Below are positions 1,754 to 32,507 of a stretch of 64,000 bases of DNA, piece by piece; position 1 is the first letter of the stretch, and each line of letters starts with the position of its first letter. Under the pieces are notes generated by a model that was given only the letters and a program-made list of their open reading frames with translations, searched no databases and had not been told where the DNA came from. The position numbers and the translations under genes were made by a program. Origin of the DNA: Curtobacterium flaccumfaciens (lineage in GTDB: Bacteria > Actinomycetota > Actinomycetes > Actinomycetales > Microbacteriaceae); contig CP121450.1 in the NCBI GenBank assembly GCA_029689965.1, positions 1,984,001 through 2,048,000 on the forward strand, given 5' to 3'.

Positions 1754-2712
1754 ATGGGACGCCACGCACTCCCCGCAGCACCCGACGGCCACGAGTCCGA
1801 GCGCGCCGCCACGACCGCGACCACCGCGCCCGCCGCCGGGGACGACACCGCCGTCGAGCTGCGCCGCCCCCGGGGACGCCGGTCCGCGTTCGGCCCCGCC
1901 GTCGCCCGCTCGACCTTCGTGGAGCACGCCAAGCCGGCCCGGAGCGTGTCGCTCTCCCCGGCACGGCCGGTCGCGTCGACGGCGGTCGCCGGTTCCGCGG
2001 TGCTGAGCCGCTCGGCCGCGCTCCGGGCCGAACGCGCCGTCGATCCCCGCCACGTCCGCCGGGCTGCGAACGCCAAGCGCGCGGCGATCCTGCTCGCGCC
2101 GGCCCTCGCGGTCACCTCGAGCCTGACGCTCGCCGTCCCCGCGAACGCCGCGACTCCGTCCACCGAAGCGCACCACGGGACGACCACCTCGCAGCTGGCG
2201 CAGACCTACACGGTGGCCCGCGACGTCCAGGTGCCGGTCGTCTCGACCGACGGAATGACCACCACGACGACGATCGTGTCCTACCCGACGATCGTGACGA
2301 AGTTCGGCGTGAGCACGCAGCAGGCCGAGGACGCCATCTCGAAGGTCCTCTCGGCCGGGGCGACCGTGCGACCGTCGTGTCCACCGCGCTGCAGTACATG
2401 GGCGACCCGTACGTCGAGGGCGGTGCGAGCCACGAGGGCATCGACTGCTCGGGCCTGACGATGGTGGCGTACGCCGCCGTGGGCATCCCGCTCGTGCACC
2501 ACGTCCCCACGCAGGACGCGGCCGCGACGACGATCCCGGAGTCCGAGGCGAAGCCCGGCGACCTCGTCGTGTACGACAACGAGGACCACGTCGGCATCTT
2601 CCTCGGCGACGACCTCGTGCTGCAGGCTCCGCACCCGGGTGACCCCGTCGACATCGTCCCGATGTACTCGGCGGCCCACCACTTCGCGCGGGTGCTCCCG
2701 GCCGGCAGCTGA
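1754..2712 (+). CDS. NlpC/P60 (C40) cell-wall hydrolase
   Basis: This is a secreted or anchored peptidoglycan peptidase of about 319 residues. The C40 domain shows the catalytic cysteine in SHEGIDCSGLTMVAYAAVG, a substrate-pocket stretch PLVHHVPTQ, and the catalytic histidine in PGDLVVYDNEDHVGIFLGDD. A hydrophobic export stretch (AAILLAPALAVTSSLTLAVP, then ANAAT) appears only near residue 120. The preceding 115 residues are Arg- and Ala-rich, so the annotated start may be upstream of the true one. However, the ATG at 1754 has a good GGAAGGA ribosome site. The N-terminal and catalytic parts are in different frames that meet near 2370, most likely a one-base sequencing deletion. Confidence 0.85.
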
Positions 2713-2741
2713 GGGCGCTGCGGCGCCTGCGTCACGTCGGC

Positions 2742-2881
2742 GCTCGCTTCGTCCCGGTGCGGCGGCGTCCGCATCGCGCCGGCGCGGCTGTGTCCGCTTC
2801 GTCCCGGCGCGGCTGTCTCCGCTTCATCCGGACGCGACCGCGTCCGCTTCGTCCGGGCGCGGCGGCGTCCGCGTCGTCCCG
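2742..2881. repeat. 25-bp tandem repeat array
   Basis: Five complete imperfect 25-bp units and one partial unit lie end to end at 2742, 2767, 2792, 2817, 2842 and 2867. The common form is GTCCGCTTCGTCCCGGCGCGG plus a four-base variable end. The array ends about 13 bp before the rlmN start and fills the gap after the wall hydrolase. Tandem repeats this close to a start can vary in copy number between strains. Confidence 0.85.
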
Positions 2882-2893
2882 TAAGCTGGAGTG

Positions 2894-4125
2894 ATGGCCA
2901 CCGAGACCCGCACCCCGTTCGAAGAGCAGCGCTCTGCTCGTCCACAGGTGCGCCCACGGACCGAGGGATGGACGCAGGCGACGGGTCCGACGGCCGGCCG
3001 CTGCTGCAGTTCGCCTCCCCGAAACGCGGCAAGCCGCCCGTGCACCTCGCCGACATGACCGTGCCCGAACGCGAGGCAGCCGTCGTCGCCCTCGGTCTGC
3101 CGAAGTTCCGCGCGAAGCAACTCGCGACGCACTACTTCACGCACTACACGTCCGACCCCGCGAAGATGACGGACCTGCCGGCGGCCCAGCGCGAGCAACT
3201 CGTCGCCGGGCTGCTGCCGCCGCTCCTCACCGAGACCCGTCGTCTCGAGACGGACAAGGGCGACACGATCAAGTTCCTCTGGAAGCTGCACGACGGCGCG
3301 CTCGTCGAGTCCGTGCTCATGCGGTACCCCGGGCGCATCACGCTCTGCGTCTCGTCCCAGGCCGGCTGCGGCATGAACTGCCCGTTCTGCGCCACCGGGC
3401 AGCAGGGACTCACCCGGAACATGTCGACCGCCGAGATCATCGAGCAGATCGTCCGCGCCAACGCCGCCATCGCCGCGGGGGAGCTCGGCGGGGACCCGCG
3501 CAAGGGCGGGCAGGACCGCGTCGATGCAGAGCGCGTGACGAACATCGTGTTCATGGGCATGGGGGAGCCGCTCGCGAACTACAAGCGGGTCATGGACGCA
3601 GTGCGCACCATGGTCGCTCCGCAGCCGAACGGTCTCGGCATGAGCGCCCGTGGCATCACCGTCTCGACCGTCGGTCTCGTGCCCGCGATCAACAAGCTCG
3701 CGGACGAGGACATCCCGATCACCTTCGCGCTCTCCCTGCACGCTCCGGACGACGAGCTCCGCGACGAGCTCATCCCGGTGAACTCCCGGTGGAAGGCCGA
3801 CGAGGCGATCGACGCCGCCCACAACTACTTCGTCAAGACCGGTCGACGTGTGTCCATCGAGTACGCACTCATCAAGGACATGAACGACCACGCGTGGCGC
3901 GCCGACCTGCTCGCTTCGAAGCTCAACGCCCGCGGCAAGGGCTGGGTGCACGTCAACCCGATCCCGCTCAACCCGACGCCCGGCTCGGTGTGGACGTCGT
4001 CCGAGGTGCACGTGCAGGACGAGTTCGTCCGCCGGCTCAACGCCGCCGGCATCCCGACGACCCTGCGCGACACCCGCGGCAAGGAGATCGACGGGGCGTG
4101 CGGTCAGTTGGCCGCGGCCGAGTAG
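2894..4125 (+). CDS. rlmN: 23S rRNA (adenine-2503-C2) / tRNA (A37-C2) methyltransferase RlmN
   Basis: Radical-SAM enzyme that methylates C2 of A2503 in 23S rRNA and of A37 in some tRNAs. The SAM/iron-sulfur motif is clear in [20 protein letters not shown] (CxxxCxxC), followed by [20 protein letters not shown]. The C-terminal catalytic cysteine is in [14 protein letters not shown]. The true start is probably the ATG at 2894 ([20 protein letters not shown]). That frame breaks near 2982 at GACGGGTCCGA, where one more G restores the reading frame into [20 protein letters not shown]. An internal ATG at 2968 would give a shortened N-terminus and is likely an artefact of the indel. The gene lies upstream of the rRNA operon. 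Confidence 0.95.
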
Positions 4126-4407
4126 ACGGCTGGTCTGGTCCTACCTGGAGGCACGGTGCGGGTCCGCACCTGGGCCAACACGTCCGGCCGCATCGGTGAA
4201 TTCCCGCCCGTCGTTCGCGGAGTGTCGCGTCAGCGTCGGGTCAGCAGCGCCGGCGGGAGCCTCTCGTCGTCCGTCTGCCGCGGCATCTGACCGGCCGCGG
4301 CGGCGGCGAGTCTCCCGTCGTCCCCGTGCCCGCTCGGGTATCCCCTCGCGTCTGGCCAGCGCCGGGAAGGTGGTACGTCGTTCCCGGTCCCGCGGGGTCA
4401 CGCGCCC

Positions 4408-4516
4408 GCACCGCGTGAGGCGCGTGCGCGGCTCGGCCGCATGGTGCCAGGTCCCCGGCGTCACGCGACTCGCACCGTGCGAGGCGCGTGCGCGGGTCGG
4501 CCGCATGGTGCGAGGT
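4408..4516. repeat. Pair of 45-bp direct repeats
   Basis: Copy one (4408-4452) and copy two (4472-4516) differ at only a few positions. Each runs from GCACCG through GGCGCGTGCGCG and GGCCGCATGGTG to an AGGT end. The same GTGCGAGG word recurs in the palindromes at 59540-59631. Confidence 0.75.
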
Positions 4517-4621
4517 ACCGCGCACGGTGGGACGTCCGGCGGGTCGCACGCCGGTCGGAACCTCGCACGATCGGCGTCCTTGCGGGCATTCGGACCACGA
4601 CACGCCCGGGGTGTGGGCGGG

Positions 4622-4651
4622 TTGGCGGGCCTTCCGGGGCGTGTGTAGAGT
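4622..4651 (+). promoter_or_regulatory. Candidate rRNA operon promoter
   Basis: TTGGCG at 4622-4627 and TAGAGT at 4646-4651 are separated by 18 bp and precede the AT-richer leader of the rRNA operon by about 310 bp. The -10 element is a fair match and the -35 element weaker. Other promoters inside the leader are possible. Confidence 0.4.
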
Positions 4652-4963
4652 AATCACTCGTTGCCGCTGCGGCGGAGAACGGAACGGCCGGTTCGGTTGG
4701 GTCCGAGTCTCGCCCGGGTGACGAAGCCAAAGCCCCTCTGATGATGTCCGCTGGTCGCGGTCGGAGTGGGGGGTGCGTCTGGTCCTTGAGAACTCAACAG
4801 CGTGCACATTGTCAATGCCAATTATTTTGTCCTCGTGACTCATCAGTTTGCTGGTGGGTTCGGGAGCAATTCCTTTTGGATTGAATTGATTGTCAGTAAT
4901 GATGGTCTTTACAGTCAGTTTCAACTCGGCTACTGCTTTCGGGTAGTGGTTGGTAATTTTTTT

Positions 4964-24145: not shown

Positions 24146-26291
24146 GCGGGGTCTTCGCGGACTGGGTCACGCCGGGGTTCTCCGCACGCTTCCGGGTCGG
24201 CGACGACCAGCCCGCCGCGCTCGTGTCCTTCGTGCCGGCCGGCGGTGCGATCACCAACGGCGCGCTCGCCGACGGAGCGCTCTCCGACGGACCGGCCGAT
24301 CCGCAGCCGCTCGTCGACGGACCCGCCGACCCGCAGCCGCTCGTCGAGCTGACGACCGTCGGGCACGGTCGGTTCCCCGGCGGGTTCCGGCACGTCGACT
24401 CCACGATCGGGGCGCGACTGCGCCCGTGTCGCACCGCGAGCACGAAGACGGGACCGATCTGTGGTTCCGCATCCTGCAGGAGGACGCGGCCACGGGCCTC
24501 CAGGCCGAGTCCGTCTTCCGGCGGAAGCCGGTGTGCCGGGGTTCCAGACGCGGACCGAGGTGCGCGCGGAGCGCGGCGAGCACGTCGTCGACTTCGTGTC
24601 GTCGTTCGCGACCGGAGCGTTCCTGACGGACTCGGGCGTGACCGTCGACGAGCTGTCGCTGCTGCACGCCGACAACGACTGGGCGGCCGAGAGCCGGTGG
24701 CGCACCGATCCGCTGCGCTCGATCGGCCTCGCGCGCATCGACCGCGAGGCCCAGCACCACCCGCCCCGCAGCCGTGCCGTCGTGCAGAACCGGGGGTCGT
24801 GGTCGACCGGCGAGGCGCTGCCGATCGGGGTGCTGGACGCGGCGTCCACTGCGTACTCGCTCGTCTGGCAGGTCGAGCACAACGGGCCGTGGCTGTCCGA
24901 GCTGGGGGAGACCCGCCGGCACGCGTACCTGCTGCTGAGCGGACCGACCGACCAGGAACACCAGTGGACCACCGTCGTCGCACCCGACCGGCCGTTCGTG
25001 TCGGTGCCGGTGTCCGTCGGGATCGCGTCGTCGGTGGGTGGGGCGTTCGAGGTGCTCACGGCGCAGCGCCGGGCACGGCGGTCGCTGCGGCCCGTCGATG
25101 CCTCGATGCCGCTGGTGTTCAACGACTACATGAACACGCTCATGGGCGACCCGACGACCGAGAAGCTCCTGCCGCTCATCGACGCGGCCTCCGACGCCGG
25201 GGCGGACCTGTTCTGCATCGACGCCGGCTGGTACGCCGAGGGGCACTGGTGGGACACCGTCGGGGCGTGGGAGCCGGCGGCGTCGCGGTTCTCGACCGGG
25301 CTCGAGTTCGTCATCGGCCACATCCGGTCGCGTGGCATGCAGGCGGGGCTGTGGCTCGAGCCCGAGGTCATCGGGATCCACTCGCCGCTGGCGTCGTCGT
25401 TGCCGTCCTCCGCGTTCGTGCACCACCACGGGGTGCGGGTCGCCGAGCACGGGCGGCACCTGCTCGACCTGTGCTCGGCAGAGGCCCGGGCGCACCTCGA
25501 CGCCGTGGTCGACCGGCTCGTGGGTTCCCTCGGGGTCAGCTTCTTCAAGATGGACTACAACACGATGACCGGGCCGTTCTCCGGGTCGCTCGAGCACTCG
25601 CGTGCCCTGCTCGACTGGCTCGACGACGTGCAGGCGCGGTACCCGGCGCTGCTCATCGAGAACTGCGCCTCGGGAGCGATGCGGGCCGACGCCGCCATGC
25701 TCTCCCGGTTGCACCTGCAGTCGACCTCGGACCAGCAGGACCCGGTGCTGTACGCCAGCATCGCTGCTGCTGCTCCCGCGGCGATGCTGCCGGAGCAGGC
25801 GGGGAACTGGGCGTACCCGGCGCCGTCGATGTCAGAGGACCTGTTCACGCTGTCGTTGGTGAACGGGGTGCTCGGGCGGATGTACCTGTCGGGGTACCTC
25901 AGTTCGATGTCCGATGCGCAGCGGGCGGTCGTCGGGTCCGCGATCGCCGCGCACCGCGAGGTCCTCGACGTGGTCGACACCGCGCTGCCGGTGTGGCCGC
26001 TCGGGCTGCCCGGGTGGGAGGACACCTGGGTGGCACTCGGATTGCGCGCTGCGTCGGGCGACCTGTACCTGTCGGTGTGGGCCCTGCCGGGGCTCCGTCG
26101 GCGGTGTCGTTGCCGCTGCCCGGGTTCGCAGGGTGTCCGGTGTCCGTGGAGCCGCTGTTCCCGACGGGCCTCGGAACGTGGGCGGTCTCGTGGGACGCGT
26201 CCGCCGGGGTGCTGCACGTCGACAACGGCGGGGCAGCGCCGACGGCGCGGGTGCTCCGCGTCCGGACGCAGGGGCGGACGCGGGGCGCTGA
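24142..26291 (+). CDS. GH36 alpha-galactosidase (type 2)
   Basis: A second GH36 enzyme, about 715 residues, clearly distinct from the one at 13654. Seen are [60 protein letters not shown], the nucleophile aspartate in [17 protein letters not shown], and the acid/base region [20 protein letters not shown]. The duplicated short stretch [10 protein letters not shown] near residue 53 is a tandem repeat inside the N-terminal domain. Breaks lie near 24425, 24530 and 26090, and a last one near 26270 yields a stop at about 26291. No signal peptide is seen. As the last gene of the importer operon it probably trims imported sugars. Confidence 0.88.
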
Positions 26292-26382
26292 CCAGGGCGG
26301 GCGTCGGATGGCAGACGGGGCCCGTCCTGGGACTGGAGGCGCGGTGCGGGCAGGTGCCGCGCCTCCAGTCCGGTGGGGTGTG
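26276..26382. repeat. Long direct repeat, copy A
   Basis: About 107 bp, close to 90 % identical to 30029-30135. Both start with CGGACGCGGGGCGCTGA and contain the hairpin element (here arms GGACTGGAGGCGCGG at 26330-26344 and CCGCGCCTCCAGTCC at 26357-26371). The two copies bracket the WXG/LXG gene unit and could support recombination or duplication of it. Confidence 0.8.
26330..26371. terminator. Dispersed hairpin element, copy 1
   Basis: Perfect 15-bp arms GGACTGGAGGCGCGG and CCGCGCCTCCAGTCC with a 12-base loop TGCGGGCAGGTG. It lies about 40 bp after the second alpha-galactosidase and before a convergent small gene. A terminator or transcript-end role is likely. The same element recurs at 30083, 33595, 36687 and 39958. 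Confidence 0.75.
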
Positions 26383-26499
26383 CGTGGGCTCTCGGCGGGT
26401 CGGGCGGGGTGGGGCCGGCGGTGGTGCCGGCCGACTCGGAACGACGAGTCCGATGTCGTACGACGTCGGAGAAGTCGTTCTGGGTCCGCGGCGAGGCCG

Positions 26500-26781
26500 T
26501 CAGCGCCAGCTGCGGCGCAGCGCGCGGAACCAGCGTGGGGTGAGCGCCGGGGGCAGGTACCACGTCGAGGCCGCGCCGAGCAGGGCGACGACCGCGGGGA
26601 CCCAGAAGAGCCAGGTCGGGGCCGGTGTGGCGAGGACGATGCTCACCAGGACGATGCCGAGGCCGAACCAGAACAGGCCGAAGACCCAGTAGGACAGGCC
26701 GCCCTTCGCCCAGGAGCGCCAGAGGCCGGTGTAGCCGAGCACGCCGACGAGCATGCAGGCGGCGCCGATGATCCAGATCAC
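26500..26781 (-). CDS. Small membrane protein, WRSW family, paralogue 1
   Basis: Ninety-three residues, start GTG at 26781 chosen by alignment to its two paralogues (28434 and 30178). It has an N-terminal membrane segment (VIWIIGAACMLVGVLGYTG), then the motif GLWRSW, a second and third hydrophobic stretch (VFGLFWFGLGIVLVSIVLAT, LFWVPAVVALLGAAS), and the end LTPRWFRALRRSWR. All three paralogues share the YxGxWRSW motif after helix one and a TP(R/G)W(F/Y)R end. The function is unknown. This copy alone is on the minus strand, facing away from the WXG-like gene. Confidence 0.75.
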   Translation of the reverse strand: MIWIIGAACMLVGVLGYTGLWRSWAKGGLSYWVFGLFWFGLGIVLVSIVLATPAPTWLFWVPAVVALLGAASTWYLPPALTPRWFRALRRSWR

Positions 26782-26913
26782 ACGGTCCCTCTCTCGTCGC
26801 ACTCGACGGTAGCGGATCGATCGAGGACGGCAGGCCGCCGATTCCCCTCGCCCGCAAGTGTCGCTATCCTCGATGGGTTCCGACACACTGCAGCAGGTCG
26901 AGGGGGATGCAGC

Positions 26914-27228
26914 ATGGCGATCAACGGATGGCGGCTCGATCCGGCCGCCTTTGACCGAGCGATCTCGGAGGCTGAGACCGCACTCGAAGACATGGCGACG
27001 GCAGAGCAGTCGTTGCAGAACGCCGCCGGCTCAGCGGAGTCACTCGCGGCCCGAGCAATGAACACGGCGACGGCGCTCAGTGCGTTCAAGCAGAACCCAG
27101 GGGAGATCCGGCTCGCCTCGATCGGTAGCCGCGTGACCGCGTCCGTTGCGGCAGCGCGGTCGATCGCGAACGCGTACGCATCCGGCGACGAGGAGATGGC
27201 GTCGAACGCGAACAAGGGGATCGAGTAG
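26914..27228 (+). CDS. Small helical WXG100-like protein
   Basis: One hundred and four residues, predicted almost wholly helical, beginning MAINGWRLDPAAFDRAISEA and ending GDEEMASNANKGIE. Size, composition and position directly before a larger LXG-like protein fit the WXG100/ESX-like class of type VII secretion partners (DUF6507-like). The GW at residues 5-6 is the only tryptophan motif and no central WxG is present. The ATG follows AGGGGGATGC. The stop codon overlaps the next gene's start by one base, so the two are translationally coupled. A secretion role is inferred from context. Confidence 0.65.
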   Translation: MAINGWRLDPAAFDRAISEAETALEDMATAEQSLQNAAGSAESLAARAMNTATALSAFKQNPGEIRLASIGSRVTASVAAARSIANAYASGDEEMASNANKGIE

Positions 27229-28437
27229 TGACCTTCGCTCCCACCGTCAACGAGCTGCCCGACCCTGCGACGCTCGAGTCGATCGGTTCGGATCTGGTCT
27301 CGGCGGCAAGTACGGCGCAGACCCAGGCCGATGCGATCGAAGCCGCGTGGAAGGCGTTCGGGTCGTCCGACGTCTACGACGCTCCTGAAGCGGCCACGCT
27401 CCGGAATGCCTTGTCCCCGATCGATGCGGACGTGGTCGGGCTGGTCGACGCAGCTTCCAAGGCGAAGAGCGCGCTCGACACGTACTCGAGGACGGTGCAG
27501 GCGCTTCAGACCCAGCGGGCGACTCTGCTCTCTGACATCAAGGCCTTCGCCGGGGCCGACACATCGACTCCAGCCGGCGCAACCGACGAAGAAGTCGCGG
27601 CAGCGGAGCAAGCACGGGATGACCAGCAGCGGGCCCTGCAGCGACGGGTCGACCAGTTCAACGCAGCGGCACTGCAGGCAGACCAGGAGTGCGCCGGCGC
27701 GATCAACGCGCTCAAGGCGTACGAGCAGTCAGCGGCCTCGAAGTTCCTGAGCTTCGTCGGCGGTGGGACTTCCGGAGCCATCATCGGTGGCGGGATGTCG
27801 GTCTCGCAGGAGACACTCGAACGGTGGCGTCAGCTCACCACCGTGCCTGCCGGAGTCATCCCGGAGGCGACGCTGCGCACCCCGCCACCCGCGTTCATCG
27901 ACGCGAACGGCAAGCAGTGGTGGCGTTCACCGAGCGGGCTCGAAGTTCCGTACCCCCGAAGGGGCCCGACATCCCCTCGACGATCCTCGGTACGGCTCGC
28001 ACAATCTGCTGGTGAAGGACAAGAACGCCCTGCTCGAGGCCATGCCCGACGCAGCCAAGGGCGCGACCAAGGTCTTGGGCGTCGCCGGAACGGTCCTCAC
28101 GCTCGGCTCGACCTGGAACGATCAATGGCACGAGGACGAAGTCGATCACCCCGACTGGTCCGACTCGCGACGCACCGAGAGCGCGGTCACCACCACGGTG
28201 ATCAAGGGAGGGACCACGGTCGGCGCCGCGGCGGCCGGTGCGTGGATCGGTGGCGCCATCGGGACTGCGCTGTTCCCAGGGGTAGGGACTGTCGTGGGCG
28301 GTATCGTCGGGAGCGCCATCGGAGGTTGGCTCGGCGGGACAGGTGGCGAGATGCTCGGCGACAAGCTGAACGACATATACCAAGGGTCGGACTTCGCGAA
28401 GGGTGTGCACGACGTGTGGAAGGGGATCTTCGGATGA
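27228..28437 (+). CDS. LXG-like protein with glycine-zipper C-terminus (putative T7SS substrate)
   Basis: About 403 residues. The N-terminal 185 residues are helical and Ala/Gln-rich (TLESIGSDLVSAASTAQTQA, SRTVQALQTQRATLLSDIKA, then AEQARDDQQRALQRRVDQFN), resembling the targeting domain of LXG/WXG-type secreted proteins. A linker follows (PAFIDANGKQWWRSPSGLEV). The C-terminal part has an acidic stretch (WNDQWHEDEVDHPDWSDSRR) and a long glycine-zipper segment (WIGGAIGTALFPGVGTVVGG, IVGSAIGGWLGGTGGEM) that could enter membranes. No known toxin domain is recognised. One frame break lies near 27960, in a C run. It overlaps the following membrane-protein gene by four bases (ATGA). Confidence 0.65.
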
Positions 28438-28739
28438 TCTGGGCGATCATCGCGGTGTCGTGCGCTTTCGCGGTCGTGGGACTGACCGCCTACACCGGGT
28501 TCTGGCGGAGCTGGACGCGTTCGTGGAGCGCCGACCGCATCTTCCCGACCGCGTTTCTCGGGTTCGGCGGCATCTGCCTGGGCGTCTTCGCGGCGCTCCT
28601 GTCGACGCACGCGTTCATGCTCACAGCGGTCATGATGATCGCGGCCTTCGTGCTGATCCTCGTCGCTGTCGGCCTGTTCGTGTTCGGTGTGCCCGCGTGG
28701 CTGACACCGCGCTGGTACCGGAATCGGAGCGGCGCGTGA
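28434..28739 (+). CDS. Small membrane protein, WRSW family, paralogue 2
   Basis: One hundred and one residues with three hydrophobic segments (MIWAIIAVSCAFAVVGLTAY, FLGFGGICLGVFAALLSTHA, MLTAVMMIAAFVLILVAVG), the motif YTGFWRSW after the first, and a TPRWYR end. It starts inside the stop codon of the LXG-like gene (ATGA) and its stop overlaps the next gene's GTG. This tight coupling suggests that the products act together. An immunity or membrane-docking role is possible; nothing in the sequence decides between them. Confidence 0.75.
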   Translation: MIWAIIAVSCAFAVVGLTAYTGFWRSWTRSWSADRIFPTAFLGFGGICLGVFAALLSTHAFMLTAVMMIAAFVLILVAVGLFVFGVPAWLTPRWYRNRSGA

Positions 28740-29161
28740 TCGCGGCCGACCTACCCAACGGCTGGGTCCTCACCGAAGCCATTTTCGGCACCGTGATCGA
28801 ACGTCCGACGCCCAACGGGTTCCGGCCCAACGTGGTCGTGGCGCAGGAATCGACGACGGTGTCGCTGGTCGAGGCATCCTCCGGCATGCTGGCCGCTGCC
28901 ATCGCCGCACACCCGGGAACGCGAGTCCTCGAGGTCCGTCGCCAGGAGCACGCGCTCGGGCCCAGTGCTCGACTGCTCTTCGGCTACCCGCTCGTTGACG
29001 ACTGGATCGTCGTCGAGCAACGTGTCATCACCACGGGCGACACGGCCGTCCACCTGACAGCCAGTGCTTCCGTGCTCGAATGGACCGCTGTCGAACCGCT
29101 GCTCGCACAGGTGATGGATTCCGTGCGTCTGGTCGACGTGCAGGAGGGAACGAGCGCATGA
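28736..29161 (+). CDS. Uncharacterised accessory protein A (LpqN/DUF1795-like fold suspected)
   Basis: One hundred and forty-one residues: LPNGWVLTEAIFGTVIERPT, then alternating strands (RPNVVVAQESTTVSLVEASS, GYPLVDDWIVVEQRVITTGD) and an end helix (EPLLAQVMDSVRLVD). The layout of a PxGW start, a middle beta sheet and a final helix resembles small Mog1/PsbP-like lipoproteins such as LpqN, but there is no signal peptide. It is clearly related to the N-terminal 140 residues of the gene at 30483. GTG start; 4-bp overlaps join it to both neighbours. Confidence 0.65.
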   Translation: MIAADLPNGWVLTEAIFGTVIERPTPNGFRPNVVVAQESTTVSLVEASSGMLAAAIAAHPGTRVLEVRRQEHALGPSARLLFGYPLVDDWIVVEQRVITTGDTAVHLTASASVLEWTAVEPLLAQVMDSVRLVDVQEGTSA

Positions 29162-29936
29162 TGCCGCGGATCGATCGCGCTGCGAGCGAGCGTGCCGGCG
29201 TCGAACTCGAAGCGCTCGACCGTGTACGCGACTACCAGCCTGGATGTCGTCTCGAGTGGCAGGGCTCGGAAGCCCTCTTCGACCACCTGTGGCACGTCCG
29301 GAGTCGCGGTCTGGTGTCGGCCGGTACTCGTCGTTCGGAGGAAGGCCGGGCCGCACGTGAGTTCGGGCTGGTCAACCGTTTCGGAGCATTGTCGGAGAGC
29401 GGCCAGGAGTTCGTCGGGATCATCGCGAGCGCCGACCGCTCGCTCCGGACGCGGATCGAATCCGGGGAAGGGACTCGTCACGCCGCGATCTGGGTGGACG
29501 GGAGTCGGGCGGCCATGCGCGTCGAGCTCGGTGCTGGACGGGTCGGCCTCGGCGTCACGTCGATCGCCGGCGCGGTCGGACACCTCCTCGACTGGGTCGC
29601 CATCGACCCGACGTGGTTCGTCGGTGAGCAGGAAGCCGTGACCGTCCCCTCACGACGCTGCAGGCACGGTATGCAGAGTCCATCGAGGCTCCGACGCCTG
29701 ACGTGTCATCACCTGACGAGCCGGAGTGGTTCCGCCGGGCCTGGGCGACTCCCGGTTGGCGGTCCGTGTTCGGCTGGTCTGAAGAGACCGGCTACGGGAT
29801 CTTCGCGATCGATGTTCCTGGGTTCGGTTGGCTCGAGCGGTACACGCAGACCGACGGTGCTGTCTCGCTCCGGCCGATCCGTACCGAGGCGGTGGTTCGA
29901 CAGGTCGTCGGCGCGGTGACTCGCGACGATCGTTGA
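29158..29936 (+). CDS. Uncharacterised accessory protein B (possibly EspG-like)
   Basis: About 259 residues. Segments shared with the C-terminal part of the gene at 30483 are RGLVSAGTRRSEEGRAAREF, GLVNRFGALSESG, AGAVGHLLDWVAIDP, and EWFRRAWATPGWRSVFGWS. Its size and its place in a WXG/LXG unit recall EspG, the ESX substrate chaperone. I see no diagnostic motif, so this is a suggestion only. A frame break near 29648 sits in CCCC where CCCCC keeps the protein reading (VTVPLTTLQARYAES). Starts overlap the upstream stop (ATGATG). Confidence 0.6.
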
Positions 29937-30028
29937 CCACGGGGACCTCGCCGGAGCGGGTGGAAGAGGGCGTTCGTGTGACCCCTGCTCCGCGTCCGGC
30001 GCAAGCCGGGCATCGCGCCGGATCGGTC

Positions 30029-30135
30029 GGACGCGGGGCGCTGAGCAGGGCGGGCGTCGGATTGCAGACGGAGCCGGTTCTGGGACTGGAGGTGCGGTGC
30101 GGGCAGGCGCCGTGCCTCCAGCCCGGTGGGGTGAG
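30029..30135. repeat. Long direct repeat, copy B, with hairpin element copy 2
   Basis: The partner of 26276-26382. The internal hairpin has arms GGACTGGAGGTGCGG (30083-30097) and CCGTGCCTCCAGCCC (30110-30124), less perfect than copy A. It lies about 90 bp after accessory gene B and just before the third membrane paralogue. Confidence 0.8.
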
Positions 30136-30177
30136 CCCGATTACGATGGGAGGGACGGGCGCGCGACGGGGGATGCA

Positions 30178-30486
30178 TTGGGGACACTGGTCTGGGTGAT
30201 CGTGATCGGCGCAGCGTTCGCGCTCCCGGGGGCGCTCGCGTACGCGGGGTGCTGGCGGTCGTGGTCGCGGGCGAGGTACCCGGTGCGGTGGTTCGGACTC
30301 TTCTGGCTCGGGGTGGCGATCGTGTGCTTCGGTACCGCGCTGCTGTTCACGAACGGCCCGTTCGTCCCGCTGTTCTTCGTACTGATGCTGGCGTTCGTGC
30401 TGTGCGGCGCACTCGGCTTCTGGATGGTGTTCGACGGCGCGCAGTGGGCGACGCCGGGCTGGTACCGACGGTCGATGCGACGATGA
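30178..30486 (+). CDS. Small membrane protein, WRSW family, paralogue 3
   Basis: About 102 residues. It has the same plan as the paralogues at 26500 and 28434: a first membrane segment (VWVIVIGAAFALPGALAYAG), the CWRSWSRARYPVRWF motif region, two more hydrophobic stretches (FGLFWLGVAIVCFGTALLFT, LFFVLMLAFVLCGALGFWMV), and the end ATPGWYRRSMRR. A TTG at 30178 after GGGGGA is my preferred start; a GTG at 30196 is the alternative. The stop overlaps the ATG of the fused accessory gene (ATGA). Confidence 0.7.
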   Translation: MGTLVWVIVIGAAFALPGALAYAGCWRSWSRARYPVRWFGLFWLGVAIVCFGTALLFTNGPFVPLFFVLMLAFVLCGALGFWMVFDGAQWATPGWYRRSMRR

Positions 30487-31638
30487 CCCTGCACGTGCCG
30501 TGGGACCCGTGGCCGGACGTGCGGTGGGGGTCGCTCGTGATCGTGGGCGGACTCGTCGCCGAGGTCCCCGAAGGATGGGCGGCGCGCGCGGACACGGTCG
30601 GCACCGTCGTGCTCGACCGTGCTGACGGCGCCGTCTCGATCGTGCTCCGAGCGTCAGACGTGCCCCTCGTCGATGATCTGAGGCGCGTGCCGATCGACGC
30701 AGTCCTCCTCGAGGCGAGCACGGACCGGCTGCTCGTCGCACTGCTGTCGGTCGACGACGTGGTGATCTGGGACGAGCGACTCGTGGCCGACCGAGGTGTG
30801 CAGGTCCGCATCGGTCTCGAGTGCTCGGCGGACGACTGGCCGGCAACGTCGCAGATCGTCGACGGGTTCCTGGAGTCCCGGTGGCACCAGGCGGTCGACC
30901 GGCCGGTGGTCGCGATGCCCGATGCCGCCGAAGTCGATCGTTCCGGGCCTTCGCTGCGGTGGGTCGCGCACCCCGCGGTGCTGGACCACCTCGCACGGTT
31001 CCGGGACCGCGGCCTGGTCCCGGGCAGTTCCCGCCGCTCGGAAGCTGGCGCCTCCGCCCGCGAGCTCGGGTTCGTCGGTCGGTTCGGCGGCGTCACCGAC
31101 AAGGGTGACGAGGTGATCGGCCGGTGTTCGACCACGACGCGGTGCTCGCCGTGGAGGCGTCCGATCCCGCTGTCCCGGCGTCGTCGATCGGTGGACGTGC
31201 TGGGTGCACGGACGGCGCTGTGTGGTCCGGGCGTCCCGGGACGACGGGACGGACACGCTCGGCATCGTCGACGTCGGCTCGGTCGCGGCGCACCTGCTCG
31301 GCTGGCTCCACCTCGACCCGGTCGGTTCCGTCGGTGTGGGGGAGGCGGTCACGATCTCCACCGCACAGTACGAGGACCGTTCCGGCCCGTGCCCGAGCGC
31401 CGTCGAGTGGTTCCGGAGGGCCTGGGCGGCGCCGGTGTGGCGGTCCGTCAACGGCTGGAGCAACGAGGCGCGGGTCGGGTTCGGCGTGCTCGTCGTTCCG
31501 GGCGTCGGTGTACTCGACTGGTCCCGTGGGGACGAGGAGATCACGCTGTCCCCGGCCAGGACGGCGACGATCGTGCGGAGTGTCGTCGAAGCCGCGAACA
31601 CCCTCGCGCCGGGGACCCGCACACGATCTCGCATCTGA
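30483..31638 (+). CDS. Fused accessory protein A+B
   Basis: About 385 residues. The N-terminal 140 residues (GGLVAEVPEGWAARADTVGT, then VIWDERLVADRGVQVRIGLE) match accessory A. The rest matches accessory B: RGLVPGSSRRSEAGASAREL, GFVGRFGGVTDKGDEVIG, VAAHLLGWLHLDP, EWFRRAWAAPVWRSVNGWS. In the first unit these are two separate coupled genes, so this is a gene fusion that links the two functions. Frame breaks near 31122 and 31205 are each repaired by one base. A strong terminator begins at its stop codon. Confidence 0.65.
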
Positions 31639-31682
31639 CCGTTCCGGTGCAGGATCCTCGGGGATCGCGCACCGGAACGGTC
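31637..31682 (+). terminator. Hairpin terminator of the WXG/LXG cluster
   Basis: GACCGTTCCGGTGC (31637-31650) pairs perfectly with GCACCGGAACGGTC (31669-31682), 14 bp with an 18-base loop. It begins within the stop codon of the fused gene. Related but imperfect copies occur near 36604 (one arm) and at 56014-56059. Confidence 0.8.
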
Positions 31683-31739
31683 AACTCCTGCACGCCGGAC
31701 GGGTTCGACCGGAGGACCGGAGGACCGGAGGACCGGAGG

Positions 31740-32507
31740 TCAGCGCATCCGCGTGGACGCGATCCCGCCATCGACGTCGATCGTGCCGCCCGTGACGAAG
31801 CCGGCCTGGTCCGACACCACCCAACCCACGGCGCGCGCGACGTCCGACGGCTGCACGGCCCGACCGGCCGGCGTCCCCGCCGTCATCGCCGCGAGGACCT
31901 CCGCCGAGTCCGCGTTGCCCGGCGTCGCCGTCGCCCCGGGCGCGACGGTCACCACGCGGATGCCCCGGTGCCCGTACTCCGCTGCCCAGGCACGGGTCAG
32001 CTGCTCGACCGCGGCCTTCGTCGCCGGGTAGAGCGCCATGAAGGGCACTCCGACGCGGGCCATCCACGAGCCGATGTTCACGATGTGCCCTCCGCCGCGC
32101 GAGACCATCGACGGGGCGAGGGCGGCGACCAGGACATGCGGTGCCCGGATGTTCGTGGCGAGCAGGGCGTCGACCGTGTCGTCCGACAGTGACTCCGTCG
32201 GGCCACCGGGGTAGACGCCGGCGTTGTTCACGAGGACGTCGACGTGCCCGCCGAGCCGTTCGGTGGCCGCCGTGGCGAGAGCCCGCACCTGGTCCGGCCC
32301 GGCGGACAGGTCGGCGACCAGCGCGACCGCACGGCCGCCGTGCTCCTCGATGGACGTGGCGACGGCGTTCGTGCGCTCGACGTCGCGGCCGTGCACGGCG
32401 ACGAACACGCCCGAGGCGGCGAGCTCGCGGGCAATGGCCTCGCCGATGCCGCTGGAGGCTCCGGTCACGAGGGCGGTACGAGGGGCGGAGGCTGTTGCTT
32501 CGGTCAT
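31740..32507 (-). CDS. SDR-family oxidoreductase
   Basis: A classical short-chain dehydrogenase/reductase of 255 residues with an unbroken frame. It has the cofactor motif TGASSGIGEAIARELA, the arginine-type NADP discriminator region AVHGRDVER, the NNAG motif in VDVLVNNAGVYPGGP, and the catalytic YxxxK in FMALYPATKAAVEQ. The expected Ser is replaced by the stretch VNIGSWMARVG, in which Ser is retained. The end is VTGGTIDVDGGIASTRMR. It is divergent from an AraC-type regulator with 123 bp between starts, a common arrangement for a regulated SDR. The substrate is unknown. Confidence 0.92.
   Translation of the reverse strand: MTEATASAPRTALVTGASSGIGEAIARELAASGVFVAVHGRDVERTNAVATSIEEHGGRAVALVADLSAGPDQVRALATAATERLGGHVDVLVNNAGVYPGGPTESLSDDTVDALLATNIRAPHVLVAALAPSMVSRGGGHIVNIGSWMARVGVPFMALYPATKAAVEQLTRAWAAEYGHRGIRVVTVAPGATATPGNADSAEVLAAMTAGTPAGRAVQPSDVARAVGWVVSDQAGFVTGGTIDVDGGIASTRMR

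What the first reader, a model, noticed from the sequence alone, without database searches (positions are those of the whole stretch)
30483..31638. Gene fusion that links accessory proteins A and B
The N-terminal 140 residues match the protein at 28736 and the rest the protein at 29158, with shared strings RGLV, RRSE.G..ARE, EWFRRAWA.P.WRSV. Two coupled genes in one unit and a single fused gene in the next is direct evidence that the products work together.
Basis: seen in the sequence. Interest (0 to 1): 0.55.

Follow-up and report, generated by a model that had tools for sequence, protein, structure and literature searches.

The report
Fused helper protein beside toxin genes
A plant-associated Curtobacterium carries a gene in which two helper proteins of a predicted bacteria-killing toxin have become one protein, and the same joining recurs in relatives, which suggests that the two helpers work together to keep a membrane-damaging toxin harmless inside the cell.

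Summary
The fusion is real. The gene at 30483-31638 is one open frame across the junction; 13 other Curtobacterium genomes carry it without a stop. The C-terminal half is clearly a paralogue of the 29158 protein (E). The N-terminal half matches the 28736 protein (D) only weakly pairwise; whole-length profiles align collinearly through both halves.

D and E belong to a predicted toxin cassette: A (DUF6507), B (polymorphic toxin ending in a glycine zipper), C (small membrane protein), D, E. In 66 Curtobacterium genomes, cassette-type D/E and zipper-type B fall in the same 13 (one weak match left out). None of 17 fetched A-B loci without a zipper match has C, D or E. The D model has the PsbP/LpqN fold shared with T6SS Eag chaperones; the E-half model resembles EspG best, weakly.

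D-E single genes recur (three to four forced changes on trees), and a core D-E protein is matched in all 66 genomes.

Best reading: D+E is a cytosolic chaperone and neutraliser of the zipper toxin, analogous to ExiAB of EsxX but built from other folds. The fused copy has no toxin gene of its own, and 7 of its 14 carriers gave no zipper toxin, so it looks like orphan immunity. Nothing was tested at the bench.

The parts
30483..31638 (+). F: fused D-like + E-like protein; 380-392 aa in intact relatives; two frame breaks in this copy (about 31122 and 31204)
30483..30881 (+). N-terminal D-like domain of F (about residues 1-133; strand/helix order as in the D model)
30945..31635 (+). C-terminal E-like (EspG-resembling) domain of F, after a low-confidence linker
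30178..30486 (+). C2: small protein with about three hydrophobic segments, overlaps the start of F; start codon (TTG) inferred. A C-family gene was found beside F in 10 of 14 carriers
29158..29936 (+). E: EspG-resembling protein, 259 aa in close relatives; frame break at about 29648 here
28736..29161 (+). D: 141-aa protein of the PsbP/LpqN/Eag-fold family by homology to the modelled D; overlaps the start of E
28434..28739 (+). C1: small membrane protein, candidate immunity protein
27228..28437 (+). B: polymorphic-toxin-type protein with helical N-terminal domain and C-terminal glycine zipper; frame break at about 27965 here
26914..27228 (+). A: DUF6507 small protein, predicted partner of B
26500..26886 (-). 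orphan C-family membrane protein, 93% identical to the C of a different zipper cassette type (domain 26521-26781)

Best explanation
A-B-C-D-E is an interbacterial toxin cassette of a Curtobacterium type VII secretion system. B carries a membrane-inserting glycine zipper at its C terminus; A pairs with B's helical N-terminal domain. D (Eag/PsbP-like fold) and E (EspG-like fold) act together in the cytosol: the D domain shields the zipper and the E domain holds the helical A-B end or targets it to the EssC-type ATPase, so the toxin is harmless and export-ready in the producing cell. C is the membrane immunity protein against toxin arriving from outside. F is the same D-E pair fused into one protein, usually next to its own C gene; it has no toxin gene of its own, so it most likely serves as stand-alone (orphan) neutraliser or immunity. 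Shown here: the fusion, the cassette and its co-occurrence. Predicted: the folds. Inferred: binding, neutralisation, secretion, which domain binds what, and the role of F.
For: Cassette-type D/E and zipper-type B are in the same 13 of 66 Curtobacterium genomes by two separate searches (Fisher p 5e-14 without correction for ancestry and leaving out one weak match in G015). Of 18 cassette-type D-E loci, 14 have a zipper B beside them. None of 17 fetched A-B loci without a zipper match has C, D or E. The B N-terminal domain carries TNT, endonuclease, CdiA-type RNase or hydrolase domains in 5 of 8 non-zipper proteins scanned. A-B pairs lie within about 10 kb of an EssC-type ATPase gene in six of the eight genomes searched. 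D model: PsbP/LpqN/DcrB/EagT6/SciW fold, Z 10.9-14.0. E half: EspG at ranks 1-11, Z 5.8-6.5. Both halves of F are under purifying selection (dN/dS 0.18-0.53 in six pairs of nine genes). Partial correlations link D with B's zipper part (0.39) and N-terminal domain (0.54), and E with the N-terminal domain only (0.61; zipper -0.02; n=9). A tested analogue exists: ExiAB and ExiCD of EsxX (PMC12744356).
Against: Both structure models are of low confidence (mean pLDDT 59 and 54), and Z of about 6 for EspG is low on its own; Foldseek gave no match at E<=0.001 for F. The PsbP/Mog1 fold is also that of plain immunity proteins (TplEi/Tli4, Tsi3) and of unrelated proteins. D, E and F have no curated Pfam family. 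N-half of F versus D is weak, and versus the core protein's N-half nil (1%). In the EsxX system the soluble neutraliser was not described as an orphan, whereas F and 4 of 18 other D-E loci are. A D-E protein is matched in all 66 Curtobacterium genomes, with or without toxins, so the pair may have another role. Four of 18 D-E loci have no recognisable C (L068, L079, L080, L141), and a C-family gene was found beside F in only 10 of 14 carriers. One partial zipper-region match (G068:C1:822559-822870) has no D/E near it, and one weak one in G015 was left out. The first version of the correlation test did not show the D-zipper link.
Confidence: 0.55

Rival explanations
1. D and E are pure export chaperones or targeting factors (EspG/EsaE-like), with immunity provided by C alone; F is an export factor for some other substrate encoded elsewhere.
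For: E resembles EspG in structure searches. Staphylococcal EsaE, an EspG-fold chaperone, serves an LXG toxin (passage in PMC11217815). C genes show reciprocal orphan copies matching the toxin type that the strain lacks (window and G031).
Against: F and 4 of 18 other D-E loci occur without a complete neighbouring zipper toxin of their own. D-E go with the zipper end and not with the shared N-terminal domain.
Confidence: 0.25
2. D-E proteins have a general cellular role (for example folding of small membrane proteins such as C); cassettes and F are offshoots of the genus-wide D-E protein.
For: A D-E two-domain protein is matched in 66 of 66 Curtobacterium genomes, in 62 over nearly the whole model; in the three loci looked at it is not at a toxin cassette. 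A C-family gene lies beside 14 of 18 cassette-type D-E loci and 10 of 14 F genes.
Against: The core protein was not seen in the 388 other genomes of the family that were searched (only four candidates per genome were scored), while zipper cassettes with D-E occur in three other genera.
Confidence: 0.12
3. F is a decaying relic of a lost cassette without function.
For: No toxin gene belongs to F; the window copy is frame-broken.
Against: Without a stop in 13 other genomes and under purifying selection in both halves in six pairs of nine genes; the breaks fit the poor quality of this assembly.
Confidence: 0.05

Closest known systems
EsxX-ExiAB-ExiCD of Staphylococcus aureus (and TelE-TipE of Streptococcus gallolyticus)
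   Same: T7SS-type polymorphic toxin with C-terminal glycine zipper, small helical partner, soluble cytosolic neutraliser, membrane protein(s), orphan copies
   Different: ExiA/B and TipE are DUF5085, GyrI-like (PMC12744356); here PsbP/Eag-like plus EspG-like domains, separate or fused; orphan copies include the soluble part; other phylum
Eag (DUF1795) chaperones EagT6, SciW of T6SS
   Same: predicted fold of D (VIA-align Z 12.3 and 11.6); neighbour of an effector with hydrophobic helices
   Different: no DUF1795 sequence match; T7SS-type cassette in an actinobacterium; zipper at the C terminus of the effector; second domain
EspG (PF14011) / EsaE chaperones of T7SS
   Same: best structural matches of the E domain; association with a T7SS-type substrate
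   Different: no PF14011 sequence match; joined to a PsbP-like domain; substrate is a glycine-zipper polymorphic toxin and not PE-PPE

Membership tests
EspG chaperones (PF14011) | sequence match to the Pfam family | tested here: not met
   no such Pfam match at E<=1 for the window's E and F pieces or at E<=5 for intact E and F proteins; PF14011 searched in 13 genomes gave no match over the cut-off
EspG chaperones (PF14011) | EspG fold | tested here: inconclusive
   EspG fills ranks 1-11, 13 and 16, Z 5.2-6.5, model pLDDT 54; Foldseek ranks 1-2, E 0.017 and 0.024, prob 0.85 and 0.80; profile comparison prob 7.7%, score above 99 of 100 decoys
EspG chaperones (PF14011) | binds the tip of a helical T7SS substrate pair | not testable with these tools
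   needs binding assays
Eag / DUF1795 chaperones | DUF1795 sequence family | tested here: not met
   no such Pfam match for D proteins (one irrelevant hit at 0.098; none)
Eag / DUF1795 chaperones | PsbP/Mog1-type fold | tested here: met
   PsbP Z 14.0, EagT6 12.3, LpqN 12.2, SciW 11.6, model of G028's D with pLDDT 59; the fold is shared with non-chaperones
Eag / DUF1795 chaperones | gene next to an effector with transmembrane-type helices | tested here: met
   glycine-zipper B beside D in 14 of 18 cassette-type D-E loci of the genus
ExiAB / TipE (DUF5085) | DUF5085 sequence family | tested here: not met
   no such Pfam match for D, E or F
ExiAB / TipE (DUF5085) | GyrI-like fold with hydrophobic groove | tested here: inconclusive
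   models matched other folds; both models are of low confidence
LXG polymorphic toxins of T7SS (for B) | LXG domain PF04740 | tested here: not met
   no such match for the window's B pieces (E<=1) or for ten intact B proteins (E<=0.01)
LXG polymorphic toxins of T7SS (for B) | common N-terminal domain with exchangeable toxin ends, small helical partner gene | tested here: met
   TNT, Endonuclea_NS_2 (twice), RNAse_A_bac and Abhydrolase_8 ends in 5 of 8 non-zipper B proteins scanned, each with A beside it
LXG polymorphic toxins of T7SS (for B) | secreted by a T7SS | not testable with these tools
   A-B pairs lie near an EssC-type gene in six of eight genomes (the EssC matches are strong but below the family's curated cut-off); secretion itself untested
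Glycine-zipper toxins | extended hydrophobic GxxxG-type repeat near the C terminus | tested here: met
   5-9 overlapping motifs in one 40-residue hydrophobic stretch in 12 of 13 D/E-linked cassettes; the count is 0 for the window's broken frame, whose zipper lies in the other frame piece; seen also in three B proteins from other genera
Glycine-zipper toxins | membrane depolarisation or pore formation | not testable with these tools
   needs expression in a laboratory strain

The most novel reading that the evidence does not exclude
An actinobacterial type VII toxin system has evolved its own two-domain cytosolic guard against a glycine-zipper toxin, joining an Eag-like transmembrane-helix holder to an EspG-like targeting domain in one polypeptide. 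This guard was fused or split several times, carried about as an orphan immunity gene, and fixed as a core gene in Curtobacterium.
Probability: 0.35. Interest if true: 0.78.

Novelty: new variant of a known kind. Interest (0 to 1): 0.58.

Why it matters
It would show that the problem of handling a membrane-inserting toxin before export was solved twice in T7SS with unrelated protein folds, and that the Eag-type fold known from Gram-negative T6SS also serves a Gram-positive system. The natural fusion gives a single protein to express and crystallise, so the roles of the two helpers can be tested directly.

Tried and rejected
Pfam, NCBIfam and PADLOC scans of D, E and F gave no family that passes its cut-off; weak chance hits (rpoB, LAL_C2, CtaG, YscX, LtfC; JetC for B) were set aside. 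PDB sequence search with the E profile gave nothing; with the D profile the best was 3lyd at E 0.15, later also the top Foldseek match of the D model. No GyrI-like entry is among the rows that I saw. A first mirror-tree run used two broken B genes from other genera and the last 120 residues of B; there the zipper correlations were low (D 0.14, E 0.17). One search dropped those two loci and took B from 60 residues behind the N-terminal domain to the end; the nine cassettes give low power. In the decoy tests one of 200 column shuffles and one of 100 block shuffles gave an unexplained very high score; I counted them against me. One core row (L067) was first labelled 'split' because its D match missed my threshold; with the label changed the tree needs 5 changes instead of 6. 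The idea that the window's frame breaks mean a dead gene was rejected after seeing intact relatives.

Limits: the genome search scored only part of its candidates in many genomes (up to 40, 28, 29, 4, 6), so absences there are weaker than they look. Seventeen A-B loci without a zipper match were fetched, not every one in the genus; for one of them (L110) the end of B was not examined.

Rows dropped: E matches shorter than 180 aa were left out of the tree, the window's own broken E and F among them; near-identical cassettes were reduced to representatives before the distance test; EspG rows with stops in my frame or too short were dropped, 22 of 30 kept; a weak zipper-region match in G015 (E 5e-6, in a 1272-aa frame) was not counted as a zipper toxin.

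Full report
1. The observation. The gene starts with ATG at 30483, overlapping the stop of the small upstream gene C2, and runs to a stop at 31638. The frame is open from the start across the junction to about 31122; two frame breaks (about 31122 and 31204) follow in the second half. The assembly is one contig of 3.84 Mb with 65.5% completeness, so indels are to be expected. In a search of 59 genomes with the first 214 residues, five other genomes of the genus matched the whole query at 54-80% identity without a stop. In the 66 genomes of the genus the fused gene, here called F, occurs in 14 including the window's; in the other 13 it matches nearly the whole two-domain model without a stop. 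The genus is Curtobacterium by the titles of all nine related records found.

2. The C-terminal half is E's paralogue beyond doubt, and on the tree F and the orthologues of the window's E form one well supported group (100/99; the window's own broken E is not in the tree). The N-terminal half matches D weakly: BLASTP 24% over 51 aa, E 0.003; profile probability 23%, 8% when whole F rows are used, 63% with more rows; 0 of 200 block-shuffled and 1 of 200 column-shuffled decoys did as well. The strongest support is the local profile alignment of 12 whole F proteins to three D-E single-ORF proteins, which runs collinearly through both halves, residues 21-376. The predicted strand/helix order of the N-half resembles that of the D model.

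3. Other fusions. D and E, each recognised by its own profile, lie in one open frame in G066, G068 (contig C10) and G076 and in G165, another genus. A further protein of about 385 aa, away from toxin cassettes in the three loci looked at, has a D-like N-half (profile probability 95%, E 4e-8; but 1% against F's N-half, same call) and an E-like C-half (E about 1e-8 to 1e-11 with a profile that held no core rows). All 66 Curtobacterium genomes match the two-domain model, 62 with one core match over nearly the whole model; in G000, G009, G023 and G068 the core match is in pieces or partial (that model held three core rows). Many of those rows carry one stop; in the two genes that I translated it is the gene's own end, and I did not check the others. 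On the E-domain tree of 41 rows, separate versus fused needs 5 changes, 4 forced by supported branches; without the core rows and two long-branch rows 4 and 3. Twelve of 13 intact F proteins begin at position 24-26 of the E model and one (G028) at 15, whereas the G066, G068 and G076 fusions begin at 2-3. That also points to separate events, though the model held F rows that I had trimmed near there.

4. The surroundings. Upstream lie A (DUF6507, E 7e-10), B, C1, D and E. B's N-terminal domain recurs in the genus with different ends: 5 of 8 non-zipper B proteins scanned end in TNT, DNA/RNA endonuclease (twice), CdiA-type RNase A or alpha/beta hydrolase; three gave no family. So A-B looks like a polymorphic toxin family. 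A-B pairs lie near an EssC-type ATPase gene in six of eight genomes; the other two have EssC-type genes but no DUF6507. The EssC matches are strong but under the family's curated cut-off. The window's B ends in a glycine zipper, read in a separate frame piece. The motif was counted in 12 of 13 D/E-linked cassettes, the window's broken frame being the miss, and seen in three B proteins of other genera, while two further B genes there are broken before the end. Searching 66 genomes with the zipper-type B and, separately, with the E profile gave the same 13 genomes for zipper-type B and cassette-type D/E, leaving out a weak match in G015. Of 18 cassette-type D-E loci, 14 have a zipper B beside them and 4 do not (G022 second locus, G024:C4, G060:C6, G068:C10); in G022 a remnant of the last 55 model positions remains. 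One zipper-region fragment in G068 has no D/E near it. Seventeen fetched A-B loci without a zipper match have no C, D or E. A C gene is recognisable at 14 of the 18 loci; L068, L079, L080 and L141 lack one.

5. Orphans. Seven of the 14 genomes with F gave no zipper B (G001, G005, G062, G067, G069, G070, G082). A C-family gene was found beside F in 10 of 14 (not in L070, L071, L073, L077). The window also holds, on the other strand at 26500-26886, a C-family gene 93% identical to the C of a different cassette type that was not found in this genome, and G031, which has that other type, holds an orphan C 84% identical to the C of the window's type. That reciprocal pattern is what immunity genes show, and it is the main reason to call C the membrane immunity protein.

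6. Folds. The D model (G028's D; mean pLDDT 59) matches PsbP, LpqN, Mog1, DcrB and the T6SS chaperones EagT6 and SciW (VIA-align Z 10.9-14.0), but also the T6SS immunity proteins TplEi/Tli4 and Tsi3 (Z 10-12). The F model (mean pLDDT 54) gave EspG structures at ranks 1-11, 13 and 16 with Z 5.2-6.5 for its C-half and EspG5 as the two best Foldseek matches, at E 0.017 and 0.024. A profile comparison of E with 22 EspG sequences was weak (probability 7.7%) but collinear, and scored above 99 of 100 decoys. Sequence families were not matched, so neither half is filed as a member of PF14011 or DUF1795.

7. How it may work. In S. aureus the glycine-zipper toxin EsxX is kept harmless in the cytosol by the soluble pair ExiAB, whose ExiB holds the zipper, and from outside by the membrane pair ExiCD, also found as orphans (abstract, first part of Results, section on orphans and Discussion of PMC12744356). 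Eag chaperones mimic transmembrane helix packing around effector helices (passages of PMC7773334). EspG, and the EspG-fold EsaE for an LXG toxin, serve T7SS substrates (abstract and passages of PMC11217815). Put together, D would hold the zipper and E the helical end. Distances of D and E to the two parts of B fit this weakly (D with zipper 0.39 given the N-terminal domain; E -0.02; n=9; not seen in the first run). F, with a C gene, would be a one-piece version kept as immunity. These steps are inference.

8. Novelty. The full-text library held no paper with 'DUF6507' and one, a genome announcement seen in the listing only, with both 'Curtobacterium' and 'type VII secretion'. Searches combining T7SS, EspG, LXG, Eag, LpqN, DUF1795, polymorphic-toxin and fusion terms held more papers than they listed; among the 8-12 listed each time I saw no title or abstract start that describes this cassette or fusion, and only three papers were opened. 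I rate it a new variant of a known kind: a toxin-immunity-chaperone module whose soluble part uses a different pair of folds.

Noticed in passing
G000:C1:2101725-2102845 (outside the window); L066:8441-9592, L084:7428-8582: A two-domain D-E protein of about 385 aa is matched in all 66 Curtobacterium genomes (62 over nearly the whole model); in L066 it lies beside an HtrA-type protease gene and a gene that I read as S4-domain (recalled, no call); function unknown.
   Followed up: partly
window 26500-26886 (-): Orphan C-family membrane protein matching a cassette type not found in this genome; reciprocal orphan in G031.
   Followed up: partly
L137 (G460, another genus) 2520-4832: Four C-family genes in a row upstream of an A-B-D-E-D-E locus, resembling an immunity gene array.
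   Followed up: no
L093, L094, L102, L107, L111, L112: A-B pair near the EssC-type locus; in L093 B ends in a TNT domain.
   Followed up: partly
L024 (G022) 1068-2475: D-E-C of one cassette type kept while its toxin gene is reduced to a remnant, with another cassette beside it.
   Followed up: partly
window 24400-32200: The cassettes follow a gene that I read as alpha-galactosidase-like (recalled, no call); in G001 and G005 C2-F alone follows a similar gene, suggesting an insertion hot spot.
   Followed up: no
window genome: Several genes are frame-broken and completeness is 65.5% in one contig, pointing to uncorrected indels.
   Followed up: no
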